This document shows positions 14,466 to 38,231 of a stretch of DNA of 39,284 nucleotides, piece after piece (within the stretch, counting starts at the first letter, position 1; every line of letters begins with the position of its first letter). Where the stretch lies: positions 1 through 39,284 of the IMG/VR virus record IMGVR_UViG_3300032242_002025. The stretch is one strand, 5' to 3'. The position numbers were made by a program, and so were the translations under genes. Source of the stretch: a virus. The notes under the pieces are model-generated. The model did no database searches, was not told where the DNA came from, and worked only from the letters and a program-made list of their open reading frames with translations.

Positions 14466-14634
14466 GTTTATCGGACGGACAGGGCGGGGGTCATCGCGGC
14501 GCCTTCACTAGGCAGGAAGGGGTCACCTTCCCCGATCGCCTTTCGCTACGGGTGATAGCTAGGGGTCATCGCTCCGGCCCGCACTCATCCCGTACAGCGT
14601 CCCCGACCAGCTGATCCCCAGCCGTCCGATAAAC
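14466..14634. repeat. 13-bp inverted repeat GTTTATCGGACGG
   Basis: GTTTATCGGACGG at 14466-14478 recurs as its reverse complement at 14622-14634. The arms are 143 bp apart, too far for a simple RNA hairpin terminator, and more like paired protein-binding sites. Confidence 0.75.
14514..14597 (+). repeat. att-like segment: two 14-mers shared with attP
   Basis: AGGAAGGGGTCACC (14514-14527) equals 21171-21184 inside the tRNA core of attP. CTCATCCCGTACAG (14584-14597) equals 21258-21271, which holds an arm-type repeat. Order and orientation match and the spacing is similar (70 versus 87 bp). The sequence between them is not conserved. Confidence 0.65.
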
Positions 14635-20351: not shown

Positions 20352-20843
20352 TCACGCGGACAGAACTTTTGACTGAGACAATCTGCCCACCGTGCTCTTG
20401 CTGACACCAAACTTTATTGCCACCTCACGAATGGACTGATCCTTGTCGAGCGCGGCTCTGATCTTGTCTCGGATCTCCTGCTTGATCTCCCCGACCCTTA
20501 CGGGTGAGACTCCGTAGATTTGAGCCACAATGAACGGCGAGCGCCTGTCCCTGGCTATGGCTACCTCCCACTCCAAAGTGTTCGGATAGAGGTCGGGCAT
20601 TGGCGAGTACCTGAGCTTCTGAACCGCCTCCTCGACTCTCCAGATCACCTTCAGCTTGTCGCCGGCAGTCCTAGCCCTGATGTAATCCCGACGCAAGAGC
20701 TCGACCTGGGATCCGTAAGACATCGGGGTAGTGAGGCGGTCGCCACCCTTGACGTGATCCCGATCGAAGGCCACGGCTGGACCCTCTGCGCAGAAGGACA
20801 ACTTCAGGAAGTGTTTACGGGCGAGCTCGTCAAGACTTCTCAC
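20352..20843 (-). CDS. Helix-turn-helix DNA-binding protein
   Basis: This 163-aa protein has two HTH-like segments in the C-terminal half: SPFIVAQIYGVSPVRVGEI (about 102-120) and SIREVAIKFGVSKSTVGRL (about 137-155). The second is a typical recognition-helix pattern. The N-terminus has an aromatic/charged region. It could be a late regulator or a terminase-small-like protein; the TerS-like gene near 30.4 kb is a better small-terminase candidate. Confidence 0.68.
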   Translation of the reverse strand: MRSLDELARKHFLKLSFCAEGPAVAFDRDHVKGGDRLTTPMSYGSQVELLRRDYIRARTAGDKLKVIWRVEEAVQKLRYSPMPDLYPNTLEWEVAIARDRRSPFIVAQIYGVSPVRVGEIKQEIRDKIRAALDKDQSIREVAIKFGVSKSTVGRLSQSKVLSA

Positions 20844-21063
20844 GGATAGCCTCCCGGTAGTCGCGCTTCAGGGACTCAAGCTCCCGCTCAAGATCGGCCT
20901 TCGTGCTCAGAACAACGGCAAGCTCTTCACGCTTTGCGGCAAGCTGTTCAGACTTAGTGGCGAGCTCTCCTTCCAAGGCTTCAGCCCTGGCAACGGCCAT
21001 CAGAAACTTGGAGACCGGGCCGAGGTGATCCATCCCGTACAAATCCCGTACACCTTCAGTCAT
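20830..21063 (-). CDS. Small coiled-coil protein, start inside the attP left arm
   Basis: This 77-aa protein has a coiled coil from about residue 24 to 75 (ALEGELATKSEQLAAKREEL). Its first residues (VRDLYGM) are coded by the tandem ATCCCGTACA repeats that look like integrase arm sites. A start at 21033 (MDHLGP) would avoid them. The end overlaps the next gene. Coding is supported by the long regular heptad pattern. Confidence 0.55.
   Translation of the reverse strand: MTEGVRDLYGMDHLGPVSKFLMAVARAEALEGELATKSEQLAAKREELAVVLSTKADLERELESLKRDYREAIREKS
21032..21052 (+). repeat. attP left-arm tandem repeat (ATCCCGTACA x2)
   Basis: Two copies of ATCCCGTACA begin at 21032 and 21043, 11 bp apart (one helical turn), about 113 bp left of the tRNA core. 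A matching pair lies right of the core. Paired direct repeats like this are typical arm-type binding sites of tyrosine integrases. Confidence 0.75.
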
Positions 21064-21286
21064 AAAGACGCCCAGAAATACCTAGTACTGAGAGCCCTAC
21101 GGACATCAGCATCAGCCCTAGAACAAAGGTGATCCGGCTAATCAGCCACTTGCCAGCCACCACAATGGTAAGGAAGGGGTCACCGGTTCGAGTCCGGTGG
21201 AGGGCTTTACCTGCAAACGCTGGGAATCGGGATGACCCCCTAAGCGCCCCGAACACCCTCATCCCGTACAGATCCCGTACATTCAC
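21056..21286 (-). CDS. ORF spanning attP; membrane C-terminus; coding uncertain
   Basis: An open frame of 76 codons starts at a GTG that makes a GTGA overlap with the previous gene. Residues 1-9 come from the right-arm repeats, residues about 27-41 (HRTRTGDPFLTIV) are the antisense reading of a tRNA T-arm, and residues about 42-70 form a membrane helix (WLISRITFVLGLMLMSVGLSVLGIS). Either a real gene contains the attachment site, or the frame is open by chance with a smaller membrane peptide at its end. Integration would cut it in two. Confidence 0.4.
   Translation of the reverse strand: MNVRDLYGMRVFGALRGSSRFPAFAGKALHRTRTGDPFLTIVVAGKWLISRITFVLGLMLMSVGLSVLGISGRLYD
21166..21206 (+). other. attP: attP core: 3' half of tRNA-Thr(GGT)
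   Basis: The plus strand reads as tRNA positions 33-73: T33, anticodon GGT, AA, a 3' anticodon stem strand GGAAG, variable loop GGGTC, a perfect T-arm ACCGG-TTCGAGT-CCGGT, acceptor strand GGAGGGC and discriminator T. The 5' half is absent: the bases before (CCACCACAA) cannot pair with the anticodon stem, and there is no D-arm. A 3' tRNA half next to an integrase region is the classic attP core. It predicts a host tRNA-Thr gene beginning GCCCTCC. Confidence 0.88.
21261..21281 (+). repeat. attP right-arm tandem repeat (ATCCCGTACA x2)
   Basis: Two copies of ATCCCGTACA begin at 21261 and 21272, again 11 bp apart, about 54 bp right of the core. With the left pair they delimit a 250-bp attP, close to the size of the lambda and L5 attP sites. 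Confidence 0.75.
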
Positions 21287-21426
21287 GGCTTAGATCCCTT
21301 CTTTGGCTTGACTGGTTTTTTCCTCCAACCGCATTGGCAACGCTCGCTGTAGACGCCTTCTGCTGGATCGCCATCTCGATACTCGGCTCGGTGGCCGCAG
21401 GGAAGACGTTGGCTGGAATAGCTCAC
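21283..21426 (-). CDS. 47-aa putative zinc-binding protein
   Basis: The product begins MSYSSQRLPCGHRAEYRDGD; a CxH pair (CGH) and a CxC pair (CQCGW) could form a compact zinc site, followed by a basic tail (KKPVKPKKGSKP). The GTG start overlaps the upstream stop and its own stop overlaps the next start, both as GTGA. Function unknown. Confidence 0.65.
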   Translation of the reverse strand: MSYSSQRLPCGHRAEYRDGDPAEGVYSERCQCGWRKKPVKPKKGSKP

Positions 21427-21653
21427 TCTGATTCCCCCATCAGGGCGGACTCGTTCATAGCCAAAGCCAGCATCCTCAGAAGGTGGGGGAGTTCTTCGCC
21501 CTCGTCGAATCCGAAGGTCAAGACGAGATCACCCGTGTCCATCCACGTCACCTCATACTCGCCCTGCAACACGAGGCGATACATCTGATCCTGGCCAACG
21601 CCGACATCGGCTCTCCAGCTAAACGTCTCCACGGATACGTCATTACTCATCAT
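21423..21653 (-). CDS. Hypothetical protein
   Basis: This 76-aa protein has alternating beta strands (MYRLVLQGEYEVTWMDTGDLVLTF) and a helical, acidic C-terminus. The ATG overlaps the previous stop as ATGA. No family is recognised. Confidence 0.6.
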   Translation of the reverse strand: MMSNDVSVETFSWRADVGVGQDQMYRLVLQGEYEVTWMDTGDLVLTFGFDEGEELPHLLRMLALAMNESALMGESE

Positions 21654-21919
21654 TGGTCGCGCTCCGGGTCGTACTTCGGTGGGATTGGCCCACTCATAAA
21701 CGACGGGTGCATAGTCCTGGCGACGGGCTTGAGGTTGAAATCGCCATTGTCATCGCACCAAGAGCGCCACATGAACTCCGGTTGGCCGTAGCGTTGAGCA
21801 AGCCAGAGCGCAGCGTCCCACCTGACAAGGAATGAAGTCACCTTGTGACCCGCCCGAGTCCGAAACCTCCGGTCACGCAGCTCACTGATTGACCTCGACG
21901 ATCTCAGCGGGCTTGACAA
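21650..21919 (-). CDS. Hypothetical basic protein
   Basis: This 89-aa frame starts at a TTG; the first about 25 residues are very basic and partly overlap the previous gene. The middle contains SFLVRWDAALWLAQRYGQPE and a PIPPKYDPERDQ end. A later GTG (residue 27) is possible. No family is recognised. Confidence 0.5.
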   Translation of the reverse strand: MSSPLRSSRSISELRDRRFRTRAGHKVTSFLVRWDAALWLAQRYGQPEFMWRSWCDDNGDFNLKPVARTMHPSFMSGPIPPKYDPERDQ

Positions 21920-22055
21920 GCGACGCTGCCAACCTCTCAGCCTCAGCTCGAGTCAATCCGCTGCCTTCGTAAACAGGTACAAGATTGCGTACCACCATCC
22001 AGCGGGTGCCGTCGTCCTTCGGTCCCTTCTCTTTGCGGGCTATCTTCTTAGCCAA
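21882..22055 (-). CDS. 57-aa hypothetical protein
   Basis: The product begins MAKKIARKEKGPKDDGTRWM and has a helical segment GLTRAEAERLAASLVKPAEIVEV. The TTG start lies three bases before the previous stop. Its basic N-terminus and compact size suggest a small nucleic-acid-binding or regulatory protein, without proof. Confidence 0.55.
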   Translation of the reverse strand: MAKKIARKEKGPKDDGTRWMVVRNLVPVYEGSGLTRAEAERLAASLVKPAEIVEVNQ

Positions 22056-22290
22056 GGTCTGTGTCTTTCACTTCGGCAATCACGCCCTCAACCTCAACTT
22101 GCAGATCCCTCAACAACCCCCGAAAACCCTTCAAGTCAATTCCGTCCGTTCGGAAGGTGAGCTCATTGCCCTCAAGCTCCATCTCCAGGGATGAAAAAGC
22201 GGGTGGCTGCACCGAAATCTCAACCACAAGGTCACTCTCATCGGCGGAACAAGCGAAGTTGATTCTCGTAATCGACTGCGTATAAGGCAT
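22048..22290 (-). CDS. Hypothetical beta-rich protein next to the integrase
   Basis: This 80-aa protein has beta strands (SITRINFACSADESDLVVEIS, NELTFRTDGIDLKG). The ATG shares one base with the integrase stop (TGATG). No HTH is seen, so it is not an obvious excisionase. Confidence 0.6.
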   Translation of the reverse strand: MPYTQSITRINFACSADESDLVVEISVQPPAFSSLEMELEGNELTFRTDGIDLKGFRGLLRDLQVEVEGVIAEVKDTDLG

Positions 22291-23309
22291 CAAAGACCCC
22301 TCGCTTCCCTGATCTCTTTGTCAAAATCCACCGACCGGCCCTGCACCTCGGAGATGATCCGGGCGTAGTGCTTGGTCATAATCTCCAGCGAATGTCCGGC
22401 GTACATGGAAACCTCGGCAATCGAATAAGAAGGGTCGGCCAACAGCAGGCTTACGAAGGTCGAGCGCAGCCTGTAGGGGCGACTGTCTCCACTGAGCCCT
22501 GCCTGCTTGAAGGCTGGTTGCCAGACCCTCTTTCTCCAGTTGCGCCAGTCAACGTCGAAGATCAAACCTGAGCTCTCAGTCTTGAACCGAAGCAGGTCTT
22601 CTCTCAGTGTCGGCACAAGCAGCCCTGGCCGTTCCCTGTTGGTCTTGCCGGAGACGATCCGGGCCGTCTGCTCACCAAGGTCTTCCCACCTGAGCCTCAA
22701 CGCCTCTCCAGGTCTAAGGCCCATGTAGGCAAGCACCGAGACAAGGGTTGTGTCCCTTAGGGGATTGTTTCCCTCAAACAGAATGGAGCGAAGTAGCTCA
22801 ACGTCTGTAGCCGAGAGGGGATCTGGAGCGAGCTTTATTTCCTGCTTGGGCTTCTTGATTTCCCTCAGTGGATTGTGGTCGATCTCGTCTCTTTGGACTG
22901 CATAAGACAGAATCCCCGACAGGAAGGCCATCGTCTTTATGAGGGTTGCCGCCCCGGTTTCCCCCTCAATCCCGGCCTTCCAGTCGAGGATCGCAGCGGG
23001 ACTCAGGGATCTGAGTTCACTCCCGCCAAGCTGGTTGTAAATCTTTCGCTCGTAGACAGAGCGGTAATGGTCTTTGGTGGTCTCTTCCCACTCTGGGGAG
23101 TTGTGATCCCAATAGACTTGAGTGAACTCAGCGAGAGTCATCTTGCCCCGGTCGGGGTTAGTGATCCCTCTCCTCTGCCTTTCCGTCTTGACATCGCGCT
23201 CAAATGTCCTTGCGTCGGCGAGCTTGCTAAATGATCTGCTGCGGTGACGCCCGATTCCATCTCTGAAGCGGACCTCATACGTCCCAAACTTTGTCTTCTG
23301 AACACTCAT
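22290..23309 (-). CDS. int: Tyrosine integrase
   Basis: This 339-aa protein has an N-terminal arm-binding domain (YEVRFRDGIGRHRSRSF), a core-binding SAM-like domain (about 55-150) and a catalytic domain. Catalytic residues in order: R199 (GLRPGEALRLRW), K222 (SGKTNRERPG), R292 with Y289 in place of the usual box II His (YRLR), H306 (GHS) and nucleophile Y315 (HYARI). It should recombine attP (about 1 kb away on the same operon) with a host tRNA-Thr gene. ATG start behind GGGGGATGA. Confidence 0.93.
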   Translation of the reverse strand: MSVQKTKFGTYEVRFRDGIGRHRSRSFSKLADARTFERDVKTERQRRGITNPDRGKMTLAEFTQVYWDHNSPEWEETTKDHYRSVYERKIYNQLGGSELRSLSPAAILDWKAGIEGETGAATLIKTMAFLSGILSYAVQRDEIDHNPLREIKKPKQEIKLAPDPLSATDVELLRSILFEGNNPLRDTTLVSVLAYMGLRPGEALRLRWEDLGEQTARIVSGKTNRERPGLLVPTLREDLLRFKTESSGLIFDVDWRNWRKRVWQPAFKQAGLSGDSRPYRLRSTFVSLLLADPSYSIAEVSMYAGHSLEIMTKHYARIISEVQGRSVDFDKEIREARGL

Positions 23310-23351: not shown

Positions 23352-23571
23352 CTGCCTCGGTCAGCATCCAGGCATTAGCTCTTGCACACGCCCGTTCCAG
23401 TCCTCTTTCCCAATCGGTGATCTCTGTCTTGTAGACAGGCTCGTTCTCGATGTAGAGCTTCAGGTACTCCGGTTGAGAGATAGCCGGCACCGAGTCCAAG
23501 ACCCTTGCGACCGATAAACCAATCTCGATCCCGTGGAACTCAGCAAGGTCAATTAGCTCCCCGAGTTTCAT
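23347..23571 (-). CDS. Hypothetical protein between excisionase and integrase
   Basis: This 74-aa mainly helical protein starts MKLGELIDLAEFHGIEIGL. The ATG overlaps the previous stop (ATGA). No family is recognised. The gene order excisionase, this gene, integrase suggests a part in recombination control. Confidence 0.6.
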   Translation of the reverse strand: MKLGELIDLAEFHGIEIGLSVARVLDSVPAISQPEYLKLYIENEPVYKTEITDWERGLERACARANAWMLTEAV

Positions 23572-23759
23572 ACGAGCCTCGCGGGATGGCCGTCTGCGCT
23601 TGGCCTGATTCGACTCTTGAGGATCTTCTCCCGGATCGCACTGTCTGGAATCAAGACCTTGCCGAACGGTTTGGTCGCGGGGATCTCTCCCCTCTTGATT
23701 AGCTTGGTCACTCGATCCTCACTGATCCTCAACATCTGCGCCACCTCTCTCTTGGTCAT
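23568..23759 (-). CDS. Excisionase-like HTH protein
   Basis: This 63-aa protein starts MTKREVAQMLRISEDRVTKL, then IKRGEIPATKPFGKVLIPDSAI. This is the winged-helix (MerR/excisionase-type) pattern of recombination directionality factors: HTH, then K-x-G-x-I/L-P and a wing. The frame is open to 23816, but the ATG at 23759 lies just after the previous stop and gives the natural domain start. Its place two genes before the integrase supports the call. Confidence 0.72.
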   Translation of the reverse strand: MTKREVAQMLRISEDRVTKLIKRGEIPATKPFGKVLIPDSAIREKILKSRIRPSADGHPARLV

Positions 23760-23764
23760 GTATC

Positions 23765-24220
23765 TCAAAGCCTGCTCACTAGCTCTTGGCTGTCGTAGAG
23801 GCAATCTGTCCTCCACTCAGGGCTCATTCCCCGAAGGTCAAGAGCGAAGGCCCAGGGGTCTGCGTCCTTGATCCTTCCCTTGAAGGTGCGGGCCAACAGC
23901 TCATTAGCCAAATGAGTCTTGGTTGCTGGCAGGGGTTCAATAGCCCACAGCGCCACCCCCTTCCGGCCTTTGGTGAAGAGCACCGTTGGGGGTCTGTAGA
24001 AACCCCTCGCGGTGTCAACGGATCTACCCGTGGGCAGAGTTGCCCAAAGAACTCCGCTACTACCAATGCCCTTCTTGGTTCGACAGACTGGCGTGAAGGG
24101 GTACCTCATCGCCATACGGTCGAAACGTCTTTCATGCGTAGTCGGGATCGGCGCTTTCTCGGGAACGAAGAAGTGGTAGTCCCCCTCATCCGCGAGAAGC
24201 GCCGCCCAGAGATTGCTCAT
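23765..24220 (-). CDS. Hypothetical replication-region protein
   Basis: This 151-aa protein starts MSNLWAALLADEG behind AGAGAAAGGTGCAAAGG, the same kind of site as the early-right genes. It is basic and aromatic, with GRSVDTARGFYRPPTVLFTK and ATKTHLANELLARTF. I do not recognise a family. Position beside the CHC2 zinc-finger gene suggests a role in replication or recombination. Confidence 0.6.
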   Translation of the reverse strand: MSNLWAALLADEGDYHFFVPEKAPIPTTHERRFDRMAMRYPFTPVCRTKKGIGSSGVLWATLPTGRSVDTARGFYRPPTVLFTKGRKGVALWAIEPLPATKTHLANELLARTFKGRIKDADPWAFALDLRGMSPEWRTDCLYDSQELVSRL

Positions 24221-31692: not shown

Positions 31693-32535
31693 CTAGTAAG
31701 AACCGTTGTGGGGATGGGAAAAGTGAACGGGATCCTTGGAGCCTGCCCACACAAGAACGTCCCGATAGGGGCTGTTCTGAAGGATGTTGCTGAGGGTTTG
31801 TGCGTCTGAGACGTCCACGGCACCACCGGGGAAAGCGGTGAACTCGTGATTGCTTGTGCCTGGTCGAGCTGCGGGCCTTACACCGGAGTTGTAGATGCGA
31901 ACCTGATCGGCGTATGAGCGGTAGCCAGAGTTGACGCCGCCCTTCCAACCCTTCTGCCTTGCGTAGTCGAGGATTGGTTTGATCCAAGCCGCGACGGGGC
32001 TACCGTCGAAGTTTGCGACCCCGCGTTGTGTTGGAGCTGCTGCGGTTGACGTTCCTGTTGCGGGCGTTCTTGCTGGTTGAGCCTTCGGCGCTGGCGGCTT
32101 GGGGAAAGAAACAAGAGAGCCACCCGTCTTTGGGAGAGGACTGAGAATCCTGTCAAGGTTTGCCATCAGGGGATTAGCCTGGGGTTGGGTCTGCTGTTGA
32201 GTCTGCCGTTGAGCTACGGAAGGGTTCTTGCCCAGATAGGTGATTGTCGCGGTTGCGTCTGTGGGGAAGTTAGCTTCGGTGTACCCGGCGTTCTTGATCG
32301 CAGTCGAAGTGAAGTCAATCTTCCTGTTTGTCCACGGCGCGGGACCGATGTCAATCTGTCTTTCGACCGTCACCTTGCCGTTAGGCCACTTGACCTGCCA
32401 ATAGCCACCGAGGGTCTGCTGGTTGTAGACCGCGATGCCCCTTGCCGTATCGGGAAGACCGAGGGCTGTGCCTGTGTTCTCTTTGTCGTTTGGACCCCCG
32501 AACCAGGAGGTCTTGCCTGTAATCGTTGGGCTCAT
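31693..32535 (-). CDS. Virion peptidoglycan hydrolase (RlpA-like plus VanY/M15 domains)
   Basis: This 280-aa protein has an N-terminal domain like RlpA double-psi barrels (TGKTSWFGGPNDKEN, ARGIAVYNQQTLG, DIGPAPW), a Pro/Ala-rich linker (about 105-175), and a C-terminal D,D-peptidase domain with GVNSGYRSYADQV, SNHEFTAFPGGAVDV (zinc H and D) and DPVHFSH. It is probably carried in the virion and opens peptidoglycan during DNA ejection, a role T7 gp16 fills in one protein. The ATG overlaps the neighbour's stop. Confidence 0.75.
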   Translation of the reverse strand: MSPTITGKTSWFGGPNDKENTGTALGLPDTARGIAVYNQQTLGGYWQVKWPNGKVTVERQIDIGPAPWTNRKIDFTSTAIKNAGYTEANFPTDATATITYLGKNPSVAQRQTQQQTQPQANPLMANLDRILSPLPKTGGSLVSFPKPPAPKAQPARTPATGTSTAAAPTQRGVANFDGSPVAAWIKPILDYARQKGWKGGVNSGYRSYADQVRIYNSGVRPAARPGTSNHEFTAFPGGAVDVSDAQTLSNILQNSPYRDVLVWAGSKDPVHFSHPHNGSY

Positions 32536-35500
32536 TCTTGCACCGGCGTTCCATCAGCGTTGTAGAGTTTGATTCCATTGACGACCTTCTGAGTTTTCTT
32601 GCCCTTGAACTTCGTTGCCGGCAGGAAGCTGAAGGTCTTGGAAAGCCCCTTGTCGGTTGAGTTTGGATTCGTCTTGGGGAAGATCAGGTTGCTGTTTGGC
32701 GCTGATGCCTTGCCGCCCTCTCTGATCCTGCGAGCCATTGAGACGCCAGGGACGAAACCTTCAATCAGGTTGTTGAGGGCCATCAGAGCAAGCTCCCAAC
32801 CATTGAAGTTTTTAGCCGTTGTCGGAGTTTTCTGAGGCTGACCGTTAGCGCCGTACATCTGTATGCCGTTGAACTTGATCGGCTTACCGCCACCATCTGA
32901 CTTTTGCATGGGCCTGAGCGTGATTGGATTCAAGTTGCTCAAGGTCGCAATCGGTCCCATAATCTGAGGCACCATCTCTTTAGCAAGTGTCCTGCCGAGC
33001 CCTTCCGTGTAAGCGCCAAACGGAGTCAAGTGAGCAAGGTCGATTACTGCGCCTTGAGGTATCTGGAAACCGGGTAGGCTGAGGAGTGCCTTCATAAAGC
33101 CGGTGGGCTTATCCGCTGCGGTGTCGATGCCGAAACGAGAACCACCAATCGGACCACCCGGACCCTTGCCGGCAATCCAGGATTTGATGTCTGAATCGAG
33201 GTTGCTATGCGCTGCCGCCATAAGACCCGTAAGGACGGGGTGATGAGCGGGAAGTGTCCACATAACAAACTTCAAGCAGTTGAGATACCAAGCCAAGAAC
33301 GGCGCGTATCCCTGAATGAAGTTGCGAAGCTCGGGGCTGAACTTGGAGTACTTGCCGAGGGTCTGATCGACGTAGCGGCCAAACTGCGCGGCCTTAGCTT
33401 GAGCGTACTTAGGGTCTGAATCCCAATGCCTAATGATCGCCTCAATCGCCTCATCCTGAGCTCTGACTGAGCGAATCCACGAACCCGTGAACTCATGTAT
33501 CTCTTTTTGGAAAGCCTTGCCGCGCACGGACTTCTTGAAGCTGTGCTCTGCTGCGCTGTTGATTCCAAAAATCTCATCTGTAATTCCGTTGACTACTCCC
33601 CTTGTGCCTTTGTAGATCGCTTTGACTACTGGCCCGTAATCCCCAGATTCGGCTGCAAGCCCCTTACGGGTGCGAGTCATCGCCCGCGACTGAGCGGCGT
33701 AAAGAAGACCACCACCGGCCTGATTCTCAAACTCAGCCGCAAGGTTTGGGGCATAGGCATGAAGCGCGTCCATGAATCGAGCGTCGATCGCGCCCCTTCC
33801 GGCAAGCTGATCGAACACTGGAATCAAGCCAACCGCAGATGTGCGCAGCGCGGCCTCAACCATGTTGCCTGCGATCCACCGTGTACTCAAAGGCAGAACG
33901 GCCCTTCTGAAAGCAGCGCCAATGATCGGCAAGCGAGAACCACCAACCTCAGCGTGACGAAGGAATGTGTGCAGCTCTTCCGCTGGAACCAGGCGGCAGT
34001 TCTTCAAGCCAGCATCATTGGCAAGCGCCTCGTGAACCGCACTCTTCTGTTCTTGAGTAAATCCCTTACGGTTGGAGATGTTCTTGCCCCACTGCTCTTT
34101 TGCAAGCTCAATCCCGCCGTGTCGAGGGTGAAGACCTGTGATCTGGTGAATGATCTGATCCTCAATGCTGGACTCGCCCTTGTAATGCGGAGTTTGAGCC
34201 TTGATCTCCGGGCCTCCAGCTTGCTTTTCCAAGACCTCGCCAAACCGTTCCATGTCACTGCCTCGGATAACCCGAACGATCTCCAAGTGAACGCCGTCGT
34301 GAGCGGCTGCCTGCTGGACTCGCTCGGCCTGCTGAAGGGACATGATCTCTTCGCCGTCCTTGATGAACTGCCTGATTACATTGCGACCAAGAGCGGCGTG
34401 TCGGATAAATGAGTCATAAGACTTCAGAAGCTCACGGACAACACCACTGCGGGCGCTCTGATCCCTTAGTGCTTCTGCTGTGTACTCCGACGAGCGGTGA
34501 AGGGTTGACTTGCCGGTGTAGGCCTCATTCTGGTATCCGGTCCTGTCCTTGCCCCCTTGATGGTAATAGTTGCGTGAGCCGAGCTTTTTGGGCCTACCGC
34601 TGACGTAGGCGATGTCGTTTGGATCAACTCCCTGCTCTTTGAGCCCTTCGATGATTCGCTCATTGCTAATCGCAGGTTCAGTTGTGGAGGTTTTGCCCGC
34701 CTCAGTCCACCTGCGATTCATCGTCTGCTTACGATCGCGGTTGCTGTATTCGCTGTCGATCTTCTTGGCACGCTCCAGGGCGGCCTTGGCGGCTTCGTGA
34801 TTGCCCTTCAATTTCTCCAGTCGAGCTGTGTCCCGCGAACGCTCAACGGAAGCCATCTGTCCCCTGGCCTTAGCTCCGGTTTTGTCGATTGAAGGCTTGC
34901 CTTGGGATCTTTGGGCCTCGTGTCCGGCTGCCCTCTCAAACTCAACCTGAAGGCGACTCTCCGCCTGCTTGAAAGCAAGATCAGTTTGTTTGGCTGCGAA
35001 CTGAGCGTTGGCAAGGCGATCCTGGCGCTCAATCCGCTGCTCGTCTGAATACATATCAGGAGCGTTTTCGTGGGCGTTCCGATAAGCCTTGTTGGCATTG
35101 GTGAGCTCTATGCCGGCGCGCATCCGCGCATTGCGAGCTTTCCTCCAATAGTCAAGATAGACAGCCATCCTTTGAGAAGCGGGATGATCGGACTCAATGA
35201 GCTCTTTGACCTGCTTGATAAGAGAACGATTGAGCGCCGAACGCTTTGTTGATTCCTTGTACTTGATTACGCCTTCTTGCTTGAGCAACGCAGTACGGGT
35301 TCTCTGGACGGCGCGTTTAGCAGCATTGAGATCACGCCTTGCCTTACGGGCTGCCATAGACTTTTCAGTTGGAACCCTGTCGGCTTCTATTGCGTACTCG
35401 CTAAGATTGCGAACCCGTCCGGCCTCAAGGAGTGGACGACGAGTGGCAGCCTCAGCGTTTAGCCCGCCGGCATCACTCATCTTCACTTGAAGGCGACGAG

Positions 35501-38231
35501 TTGCGTCTGCCTGCGAGCGAGCCGAGCGGAGCAAAAATCCTGAGTCAATGCCGGGAACGCGATGACGAGAAGCTGTGTCCGCGACGGCATTGCTCCAAAT
35601 CTCGTCCATTACTTCAGGGTGCTTTTCGCGGACGCGCTTCAAGAGGTAGAGAGCCAATGCCTCGTCAAACTTGCCGGGTATTGGGGCCACTGTCAGGGCT
35701 GCGATCGGTGCTTTGTACTTTGCTGGGATTCGCTTATCTGCAATGAAGTTCTTGACGGCACGGGCGACGGTTTGCGCCGCCGCTGCTCCGCCCCTAGCAA
35801 TGCTTCGTTGAGCACTGACGTAGTCCATTCCATTCTCGGCCATCATTTCGCGCAAGTAAGCAATCTTGTTTGCGTCCACTCGCCCTGACACGGCTGATTC
35901 TGCGCTAGGCGAGAACTCTGCGTCCCTGAAACCCTGCATCGCACGAGTGGGATTAGCGTGGGATTCAATGCTCTTGATCGCACGATTGACGACCTCAAGG
36001 TTCTTACGGTTGGCGGTCATTGCATCCGACTTTTCATCGAGCTCAGACAACCTCAATGGGCCAGCCTGATTCCATTTGAGCGGTCCCCTGGCACCCTTCT
36101 CAATCGCATCACGCTCGGCATAAAGTTCTTTCAACGTCTCCTCTGGGCCGGACTCCAATGCCTTGCGACTGAGCTTGCCTTGATTGACCAAGGAGACAAG
36201 ATCCTGCTCAAGAGTCTTTGTGACGTTGGCGGTCATTGACTTGGCGCGAGCCTTGCGAACGTCAAGGATTGCCTTTACACCGCTTGGAGCGCGGAACGAC
36301 TTGACAGCAGGAACCGCTAGCTCCTTTCCTTCCTCCAACCGAACAGGACGCTCATTCTGCTTGATGTCATAAGCCCTACGAAGCATCTGCGCTGGAGACT
36401 CGTACTGAGCATTTGGATCTCGCACTTCCTCAACATGAACCTTGCCTTGAGAGTCGGTGTAGGTTGCCAACGGAGCATCGCGTTTGACTCGTGGCAGGGG
36501 AGAATTGCCCATGTCCCTGATGACTTCATCACTTGGAAGGATTCCGCTCTTCTTGAATTGGTTGCGGGCATTACGGTCAATCGACTTCTTGATTGCTTTC
36601 TCGTCCGCGTATGACGGCACTGAAGAGATCTCCTCAGGCGTCAGTGTTCCACGGATCTCTTTTGCGGAAATCGGAACATCACGCAATTCAACTCGGTCGC
36701 CACTCTTGAACTCAACCCCCATTTTCTGAAGATCGCCGTGAGTCAACAGGTTTCCGTTGGGACCGTGCAGCACACCATCCTTCATAAACGTGCCATAAGG
36801 CATTTGTGCTTTGGTGCCATCTACAAACGTCACCTTGGGTCCAACCGTGCGAAATTGACCGATTCCAGTCGGAGGTGCTTCAACCGCCTCGGCGCGACCG
36901 GCTCTTTCGTTGATATTCAGAGACTCTGCTGCCTCATTCCCCCTACGTCGAGCTTCGCTCTTGAAGCGTTCATCGACGGCCTTGTTGAATACCTTGGCAC
37001 CCTTGTTGAGCAGGAGGTCTCTCGGGGTTGCCATGCCCCCACCGCTCCTGTCGGTGGCCGGAGACTTGTAGACATTTCTGCCTGAAGCGCGATAAGGCTT
37101 GTCACGAAGAATCTCGGACCCTGTCTTCAATCCCATCTCAGCGCGTGTCTTGGGAGATGTGTGCTGAGTTTCAGTGGCACGCTCTTTGGCTACTTGGAGC
37201 AGTTGGTTGATTGCATCCTTGCTGTAGGAACGGGGGATCACCATGTCCCGTTGCGGGTCATAAATTGAAGGTCGATCGGTGAGCATCGCCGCTTTCGCGT
37301 TTTCGCCCAATGCGCCCTTGCGACCAAGGAATCCGACGCCCCGACCAAGAGCGGCCTTTGTTCCAAGTAATGTCAAGGTTGTTGCAACGGGATCTTGGTT
37401 GAACGAGCTGGGGAGATGGGTGGCTATGTGAACCGTGGGGTCAATGATGTCTTTCTTGACCGCGTAAAACGGGTTCTTTTCAAGCGTGTCCCTGGCAATC
37501 TGATACCCGGTAAGAACACTCTCCGCAGGTAGCCTCGCTGCACCAGTAAATGTTCTTTTAGCGAAAGCAGGGTCAACGCTGATTGACGGGTTATAGCCAA
37601 GGCTCTTCTGTGAGGTTCCCGGTGCGCTGAACTTGTCGTAGGCTTTGTTCGCAAGCTCACCCGATTTTTCAACCAAGTACTTAGCCGTTTGACCCGCTGA
37701 CTCCATGGTGAAGGGATTTACGGCTTGAGCACTATCGTTCTTTAGAGCAACCTGCGCAGCTTTGACTCCTTCATCCCTAGAGTATTTAGGAGAAATGATT
37801 TCACGCGATGGATCCCACCAAGGAGAGCTCTTGTAGTCCCCGCTTGAGTTGACGATCTGATGATTGCGACGAAGGATGAGCTGGGACAGCGGCTCGCCGG
37901 GAGCCTCAAGCGCCATCTGAAGAAGGTTACGCCTCTTGCCAATGTTCCCAAGCGCGTTGTCCAGGCTTCTGCGAACCGCAAAGCTATTGAGTTTGGGGCC
38001 GAAAGTGTTTTGGAGTTGAACGATCGGAGTGTTCTGTCGAACGTCCTGACGGATCAAGGCGTTGAACTGATTGTGCTGCTGGACAGCTTGCTTTCTTTGA
38101 GCCGGAGAGTTGTTTGGGCCGACAAGTCGAGTCACGGCTCCGCTTTGCGAAAACGGGTTTCGGAAAACGGTAGGAATGGGTTTAGGTGTCGGAGGTGGTT
38201 GCGATCCCCCACCGCCCATAGACCTTTGCAT
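32532..38231 (-). CDS. Very large internal virion (ejection) protein, 1,899 aa
   Basis: This gene takes up 14.5% of the genome. The N-terminus (1-60) is Pro/Gly-rich and disordered. Long charged helices and coiled coils occupy roughly residues 650-1250 (for example AARKARRDLNAAKRAVQRTR near 950). Amphipathic or hydrophobic helices appear near 1455-1480 (STRWIAGNMVEAALRTSAVG) and 1645-1675 (APFLAWYLNCLKFVMWTLP). Such proteins (T7 gp16, 1,318 aa) are ejected and form a conduit across the envelope. No lytic motif is seen; that activity is in the next gene. The start overlaps the previous stop as TAATG. Confidence 0.75.
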   Translation of the reverse strand: MQRSMGGGGSQPPPTPKPIPTVFRNPFSQSGAVTRLVGPNNSPAQRKQAVQQHNQFNALIRQDVRQNTPIVQLQNTFGPKLNSFAVRRSLDNALGNIGKRRNLLQMALEAPGEPLSQLILRRNHQIVNSSGDYKSSPWWDPSREIISPKYSRDEGVKAAQVALKNDSAQAVNPFTMESAGQTAKYLVEKSGELANKAYDKFSAPGTSQKSLGYNPSISVDPAFAKRTFTGAARLPAESVLTGYQIARDTLEKNPFYAVKKDIIDPTVHIATHLPSSFNQDPVATTLTLLGTKAALGRGVGFLGRKGALGENAKAAMLTDRPSIYDPQRDMVIPRSYSKDAINQLLQVAKERATETQHTSPKTRAEMGLKTGSEILRDKPYRASGRNVYKSPATDRSGGGMATPRDLLLNKGAKVFNKAVDERFKSEARRRGNEAAESLNINERAGRAEAVEAPPTGIGQFRTVGPKVTFVDGTKAQMPYGTFMKDGVLHGPNGNLLTHGDLQKMGVEFKSGDRVELRDVPISAKEIRGTLTPEEISSVPSYADEKAIKKSIDRNARNQFKKSGILPSDEVIRDMGNSPLPRVKRDAPLATYTDSQGKVHVEEVRDPNAQYESPAQMLRRAYDIKQNERPVRLEEGKELAVPAVKSFRAPSGVKAILDVRKARAKSMTANVTKTLEQDLVSLVNQGKLSRKALESGPEETLKELYAERDAIEKGARGPLKWNQAGPLRLSELDEKSDAMTANRKNLEVVNRAIKSIESHANPTRAMQGFRDAEFSPSAESAVSGRVDANKIAYLREMMAENGMDYVSAQRSIARGGAAAAQTVARAVKNFIADKRIPAKYKAPIAALTVAPIPGKFDEALALYLLKRVREKHPEVMDEIWSNAVADTASRHRVPGIDSGFLLRSARSQADATRRLQVKMSDAGGLNAEAATRRPLLEAGRVRNLSEYAIEADRVPTEKSMAARKARRDLNAAKRAVQRTRTALLKQEGVIKYKESTKRSALNRSLIKQVKELIESDHPASQRMAVYLDYWRKARNARMRAGIELTNANKAYRNAHENAPDMYSDEQRIERQDRLANAQFAAKQTDLAFKQAESRLQVEFERAAGHEAQRSQGKPSIDKTGAKARGQMASVERSRDTARLEKLKGNHEAAKAALERAKKIDSEYSNRDRKQTMNRRWTEAGKTSTTEPAISNERIIEGLKEQGVDPNDIAYVSGRPKKLGSRNYYHQGGKDRTGYQNEAYTGKSTLHRSSEYTAEALRDQSARSGVVRELLKSYDSFIRHAALGRNVIRQFIKDGEEIMSLQQAERVQQAAAHDGVHLEIVRVIRGSDMERFGEVLEKQAGGPEIKAQTPHYKGESSIEDQIIHQITGLHPRHGGIELAKEQWGKNISNRKGFTQEQKSAVHEALANDAGLKNCRLVPAEELHTFLRHAEVGGSRLPIIGAAFRRAVLPLSTRWIAGNMVEAALRTSAVGLIPVFDQLAGRGAIDARFMDALHAYAPNLAAEFENQAGGGLLYAAQSRAMTRTRKGLAAESGDYGPVVKAIYKGTRGVVNGITDEIFGINSAAEHSFKKSVRGKAFQKEIHEFTGSWIRSVRAQDEAIEAIIRHWDSDPKYAQAKAAQFGRYVDQTLGKYSKFSPELRNFIQGYAPFLAWYLNCLKFVMWTLPAHHPVLTGLMAAAHSNLDSDIKSWIAGKGPGGPIGGSRFGIDTAADKPTGFMKALLSLPGFQIPQGAVIDLAHLTPFGAYTEGLGRTLAKEMVPQIMGPIATLSNLNPITLRPMQKSDGGGKPIKFNGIQMYGANGQPQKTPTTAKNFNGWELALMALNNLIEGFVPGVSMARRIREGGKASAPNSNLIFPKTNPNSTDKGLSKTFSFLPATKFKGKKTQKVVNGIKLYNADGTPVQE

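What the first reader, a model, noticed from the sequence alone, without database searches (positions are those of the whole stretch)
21032..21281. Complete 250-bp attP: tRNA-Thr(GGT) half as core, paired 11-bp-spaced arm repeats on both sides
Bases 21166-21206 match tRNA positions 33-73 of a tRNA-Thr(GGT), with a perfect T-arm and no 5' half. ATCCCGTACA occurs twice with 11-bp periodicity at 21032 and 21043, and twice at 21261 and 21272. Integrase arm-type sites of lambda and L5 have this layout. It predicts the insertion site and gives a host test: a tRNA-Thr gene with acceptor strand GCCCTCC.
Basis: partly seen in the sequence, partly recalled or inferred. Interest (0 to 1): 0.75.

Follow-up and report, generated by a model that had tools for sequence, protein, structure and literature searches.

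The report
Phage tRNA-Thr integration site, host identified
This is the DNA site a temperate phage uses to insert itself into a bacterial threonine-tRNA gene; it is a well-formed member of a familiar kind, and its borrowed half-tRNA identifies the probable host as uncultivated freshwater Solirubrobacterales, bacteria for which I found no described phage.

Summary
Confirmed, and the reading as a phage attachment site (attP) is well supported. The tRNA-Thr(GGT) 3' half lies at 21165-21206 (A32-T73, one base longer than stated). It matches host tRNA-Thr genes without mismatch in only 10 metagenome-assembled genomes among 84,980 species, all in one order (Solirubrobacterales) and all with the predicted GCCCTCC acceptor strand. 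The paired repeats are the only exact 10-mer tandems at 11-bp lag in the 39-kb window. Two sibling phages carry a half-tRNA at the syntenic place, with compensatory T-stem changes found in other hosts of the order. They also carry their own, differently spelled, 11-bp-spaced arm pairs at similar positions. Related integrases in that order sit beside tRNA-Thr(GGT) in 13 genomes, and their flanks show the same 11-bp tandem. All 11 half-copies begin at A32, placing the left edge of the common core in the anticodon loop. The integrase model has a lambda-Int-like fold with an N-terminal beta-beta-beta-alpha domain. The layout is that of mycobacteriophages L5, Giles and Omega: a new member of a known kind. 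What is new is the host prediction and the arm-site series. Strand exchange, arm binding and lysogeny are inferred; no lysogen of this phage was found.

The parts
21032..21052 (+). left arm pair: ATCCCGTACA at 21032-21041 and 21043-21052, 11-bp period
   Evidence: same layout in L055 and L058
21165..21206 (+). attP common core: tRNA-Thr(GGT) bases A32-T73
   Evidence: exact match in 10 host MAGs
21165..21171 (+). inferred 7-bp overlap (strand-exchange) region, anticodon loop ATGGTAA
   Evidence: all 11 half-copies begin at A32; the position of cleavage is inference
21261..21281 (+). right arm pair: ATCCCGTACA at 21261-21270 and 21272-21281, 11-bp period
   Evidence: same layout in L055 and L058
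22290..23309 (-). tyrosine integrase, 339 aa, lambda-Int-like three-domain fold; its 3' end faces the attP
   Evidence: PHROG 1, PF00589/PF22022/PF14659, AlphaFold2 pLDDT 93, best PDB fold matches lambda Int 1z1b/1z1g
23568..23816 (-). 82-aa helix-turn-helix protein, candidate excisionase
   Evidence: PHROG 66 and 2907, excisionase; PF12728
20830..21063 (-). small gene with coiled-coil-like sequence whose 5' end overlaps the left arm pair
   Evidence: counterparts at the same place in L055 and L058, seen by reading the ORFs that overlap the site; no Pfam or PHROG match

Best explanation
21032-21281 is the attP of a temperate tailed phage of Solirubrobacterales. The phage-encoded lambda-type tyrosine integrase (22290-23309) binds the two arm pairs with its N-terminal domain and binds the core around the anticodon loop with its other domains. 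It recombines the 42-bp core with the identical 3' half of a host tRNA-Thr(GGT) gene, probably exchanging strands in the 7 bp of the anticodon loop. Integration leaves an intact tRNA gene at one junction (host 5' half plus phage 3' half) and a silent half-tRNA at the other. The helix-turn-helix gene at 23568-23816 is the likely excisionase. Shown here by sequence: the core identity, the arm repeats, their recurrence in relatives, and the junction structure of related elements. Inferred: arm binding by Int, the position of strand exchange, the role of the excisionase candidate, and lysogeny of this phage.
For: Exact 42-nt core in host tRNA-Thr(GGT) genes of one order only. The host-5'/phage-3' chimera is called a complete tRNA-Thr(GGT). 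Syntenic half-tRNA with compensatory T-stem changes, plus own arm pairs, in two sibling phages. Lag-11 tandems in the flanks of related integrated elements: 8.2 of 10 against 6.0 at other lags and at most 6.6 in shuffles. Related integrases beside tRNA-Thr(GGT) in 13 genomes. Full tRNA and half-copy bracketing a 43-kb element in G062. Integrase fold like lambda Int with a beta-beta-beta-alpha N-terminal domain. Related terminase, portal and capsid genes in genomes of the same order.
Against: No lysogen or junction read of this phage is known. No prophage closer than 46% in terminase was found in the order. Pfam recognises no named arm-binding domain in the N terminus. The attP is about 1.1 kb from int, with small ORFs between, farther than in most relatives. 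A fifth copy of the 10-mer at 14587 has no explanation. The integrase's nearest relatives do not form one tRNA-Thr(GGT) clade.
Confidence: 0.94

Rival explanations
1. The core is a true attP core, but the 11-bp repeats are operator sites for a phage repressor or another regulator rather than Int arm sites.
For: The left pair overlaps the 5' end of a leftward gene, and a fifth single copy lies between divergent genes at 14587. The phage encodes several helix-turn-helix proteins.
Against: The pairs flank the core on both sides in three phages with different letters but the same spacing, and lag-11 pairs are also found beside tRNA genes in elements that share only the integrase family.
Confidence: 0.05
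2. The half-tRNA is the remnant of a decayed phage tRNA gene or a chance capture, not an attachment site.
For: Phages can carry tRNA genes and tRNA fragments (general knowledge).
Against: The fragment starts at the same base (A32) in all 11 half-copies, keeps exact host identity, is syntenic in siblings with compensatory changes, and is flanked by arm pairs.
Confidence: 0.01

Closest known systems
attP of Cluster J mycobacteriophages (Omega, BAKA; PMC3706429)
   Same: attP downstream of a tyrosine integrase gene; 44-bp tRNA core whose left end lies in the anticodon loop; pairs of 10-bp direct-repeat putative arm sites on both sides
   Different: tRNA-Leu instead of tRNA-Thr; different arm letters; Omega has extra arm-like sites at the start of int, not seen here; host Mycobacterium
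attP of mycobacteriophages L5, Giles and Cluster K (PMC3203893)
   Same: pairs of putative arm-type repeats flanking the core; direct orientation on both sides as in L5 and Giles; arm letters change with the integrase N-terminal region
   Different: CrimD has its right-hand pair inverted and a tmRNA core; L5 has additional arm sites; unrelated arm letters here
Phage lambda integrase and attP
   Same: tyrosine integrase with N-terminal arm-binding, core-binding and catalytic domains; best full-length PDB fold matches
   Different: lambda does not use a tRNA gene (own knowledge); 17-18% identity in the structural alignment; host DNA-bending sites not tested here

Membership tests
tRNA-targeting phage attP (tyrosine integrase class) | core of roughly 30-45 bp identical to the 3' half of a host tRNA gene, so that the tRNA is rebuilt on integration | tested here: met
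   42 nt exact in 10 MAGs; the chimera is called tRNA-Thr(GGT); size range from PMC10865867
tRNA-targeting phage attP (tyrosine integrase class) | integrated relatives show a full tRNA at one end and a half-copy at the other | tested here: met
   G062, G189, G190, G197, G068, G078; shown for related elements, not for this phage
lambda/L5-type attP with arm-type sites | short repeats on both sides of the core | tested here: met
   two pairs, 21/22 identical; recurring layout in L055 and L058
lambda/L5-type attP with arm-type sites | integrase N-terminal domain binds the repeats | not testable with these tools
   needs footprinting
lambda-type (heterobivalent) tyrosine integrase | separate N-terminal domain in front of core-binding and catalytic domains | tested here: met
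   model with three strands and a helix at residues 2-47, pLDDT 93; full-length matches to 1z1b/1z1g; no Pfam arm-domain match
lambda-type (heterobivalent) tyrosine integrase | host DNA-bending factor (IHF or mIHF) sites between core and arms | not tested
   no search made
tRNA-dependent lysogeny (PMC10865867) | short (about 10 bp) core that does not rebuild the tRNA, with a phage-encoded tRNA as substitute | tested here: not met
   the core is 42 bp and rebuilds the tRNA; no tRNA gene in the phage

The most novel reading that the evidence does not exclude
A large integrase family in Solirubrobacterales uses one fixed arm-site format (two 10-mers at 11-bp lag on each side of the core, often with a GTACAT- or GAACAT-like inner unit) while the letters change from integrase to integrase. 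This would give a natural series for decoding how the N-terminal domain reads its arm sequence, and for predicting hosts of uncultivated phages from attP alone.
Probability: 0.6. Interest if true: 0.45.

Novelty: new member of a known kind. Interest (0 to 1): 0.36.

Why it matters
It ties an uncultivated phage lineage to a specific host order (freshwater Solirubrobacterales) through one gene. My literature searches returned no paper on a described phage of these bacteria (the library holds only part of the literature). It also gives a testable integrase-attP pair for a group that probably lacks genetic tools, and shows that tRNA-Thr(GGT) is a recurrent integration target in that order.

Tried and rejected
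Close relatives of the integrase in IMG/VR by peptide patterns: none confirmed. Exact core and exact arm pair in IMG/VR: no match; the window's own record may be left out of such scans. Rfam on 20500-22000: no match at E up to 1, consistent with only a half-tRNA. The 76-aa ORF at 21056-21286 across the core has no counterpart in the siblings and was rejected as a gene. An integrated copy of the phage in the order: terminase relatives in 5 genomes, at best 46% identity, and no integrase homologue in the stretches read around four of them. A tree of 33 integrases puts the window with its two siblings (98/99 support), but the tRNA-Thr(GGT) label needs 7 changes on the tree, so target choice does not mark a single clade.

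Full report
What was checked. ATCCCGTACA occurs at 21032, 21043, 21261 and 21272. The two pairs form a 22-nt direct repeat with one mismatch, 229 bp apart. Across the whole 39,284-bp window only these two places hold an exact 10-mer repeated at lag 11. ARAGORN finds no tRNA in the window, so the half is only a half. The record is an IMG/VR virus record with a 123-bp terminal direct repeat.

Host test. One scan of 84,980 bacterial and archaeal species for the anticodon loop plus T-arm plus acceptor (five bases left free, four in the anticodon stem and one in the variable loop) gave 11 contigs from 10 MAGs. All 10 genomes reappear with zero mismatches in the order-level search centred on one of them, including the two MAGs whose titles say Bifidobacterium breve; the other titles say Solirubrobacterales or Actinomycetota. 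Ten of the 11 contigs hold a complete tRNA-Thr(GGT). The host-5'/phage-3' chimera is called tRNA-Thr(GGT) by ARAGORN.

Sibling phages. The terminase finds 16 relatives in IMG/VR, most of the better ones at 79-84% identity. Two of these, L055 and L058, contain an integrase about 42% identical to the window's and a tRNA-Thr half at the syntenic place. The half differs from the window's at three positions: two are compensatory within the T stem (ACCGG/CCGGT to GCCGG/CCGGC) and one is in the acceptor strand. That variant occurs as exact chromosomal sequence in other genomes of the order, for example G065, G071 and G189. In both siblings a pair of 11-bp-spaced repeats lies about 118 bp left of T33 and another about 92 bp right of it, close to the window's -134 and +95. 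In L058 the two pairs are identical over 21 nt (CGGGGTGCATCTCGGGTACAT); in L055 they are related but less alike. The arms differ in letters from those of the window, as expected if each integrase reads its own arm sequence. Genes left of the site (an HTH gene and an HNH gene, 41-51% identical) are conserved in order.

Integrated relatives. A search of 232 genomes of the order with the integrase gave 53 genomes with a match. Of 30 loci examined, 17 have a tRNA gene in the fetched stretch, 8 of them tRNA-Thr(GGT). Combining, the integrase match lies within 700 bp of a tRNA-Thr(GGT) gene or its half in 13 genomes. In most of them the 3' end of int faces the 3' end of the tRNA, as it would in this phage after integration. 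In G062 the full tRNA and a half-copy bracket a 43-kb element. G189, G190, G197, G068 and a tandem array in G078 show the same arrangement.

Arms in general. In 160-bp right-hand flanks of 15 such sites, the best 10-mer match at lag 11 averages 8.2 of 10, against 6.0 (sd 0.37) at other lags from 5 to 23 and 5.9 (maximum 6.6) in shuffles; nine left-hand flanks give 7.8 against 6.0. The letters differ (GTACATT-like, GAACATT-like, GCGTCCA-like) but the spacing is kept. Some of these elements are related to one another and the sites were not drawn blind, so the z-scores (6.0 and 5.6) overstate independence.

Where strand exchange occurs. All 11 half-copies (three phage attP, eight chromosomal) begin at A32 or up to four bases before it, and A32 is the only base left of T33 shared by all. 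In the host gene, the anticodon stem CTTCC/GGAAG brackets the 7-bp loop ATGGTAA. The inference is a 7-bp overlap at 21165-21171 with core-type sites in the stem.

The integrase. PHROG 1 and Pfam PF00589, PF22022 and PF14659 match. The AlphaFold2 model from 19 sequences has mean pLDDT 93, with a three-strand-plus-helix N-terminal domain (residues 2-47) followed by core-binding and catalytic domains. The best PDB matches are full-length lambda integrase structures (1z1b, 1z1g). pTM is 0.74, and the superposition rmsd over the full length is high, probably because domain orientations differ; the DNA-bound shape is not modelled. An 82-aa HTH gene with excisionase-family matches lies upstream.

What is known. 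Paired arm-type repeats on both sides of a tRNA or tmRNA core (24-47 bp) are described for Cluster K (PMC3203893) and Cluster J mycobacteriophages (PMC3706429), including direct orientation in L5 and Giles and a core ending in the anticodon loop in Omega. PMC10865867 states 30-45 bp as the usual common core. The window's site fits this kind in every feature tested. It is a new member, not a new kind.

Limits. No lysogen, no junction reads, no biochemistry. The host assignment rests on one gene plus weaker support from genomes of the order with related terminase, portal and capsid genes (roughly 28-46% identity).

Noticed in passing
window 14587-14596: A fifth, single copy of ATCCCGTACA in the gap between the leftward terminase gene and rightward genes; function unknown.
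   Followed up: partly
L005 534-1360 and L011 1-525: MAG G004 has a full tRNA-Thr(GGT), then a 755-bp stretch with a uracil-DNA-glycosylase-family gene (PF03167), then a half-copy with no integrase between; a third half-copy abuts chromosomal-looking flank on another contig. The gene is absent from the other host loci held.
   Followed up: partly
L013 1002-2259: G007 carries a related integrase gene ending 16 bp from a second, different tRNA-Thr(GGT) gene on a small contig; it may be a second target or a binning error.
   Followed up: no
L105, L106, L109, L112, L113, L114: Genomes G171, G046, G184 and G172 of the order hold relatives of the window's terminase, portal and capsid genes but no homologue of its integrase in the stretches read.
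   Followed up: partly
window 32532-38231: 1899-aa protein without any Pfam match, most likely a large internal virion protein.
   Followed up: no
L120, L121, L122 (G078 contig 11): Three tRNA-Thr(GGT) full or half sites in a row bracket two consecutive islands of about 19 and 34 kb.
   Followed up: partly
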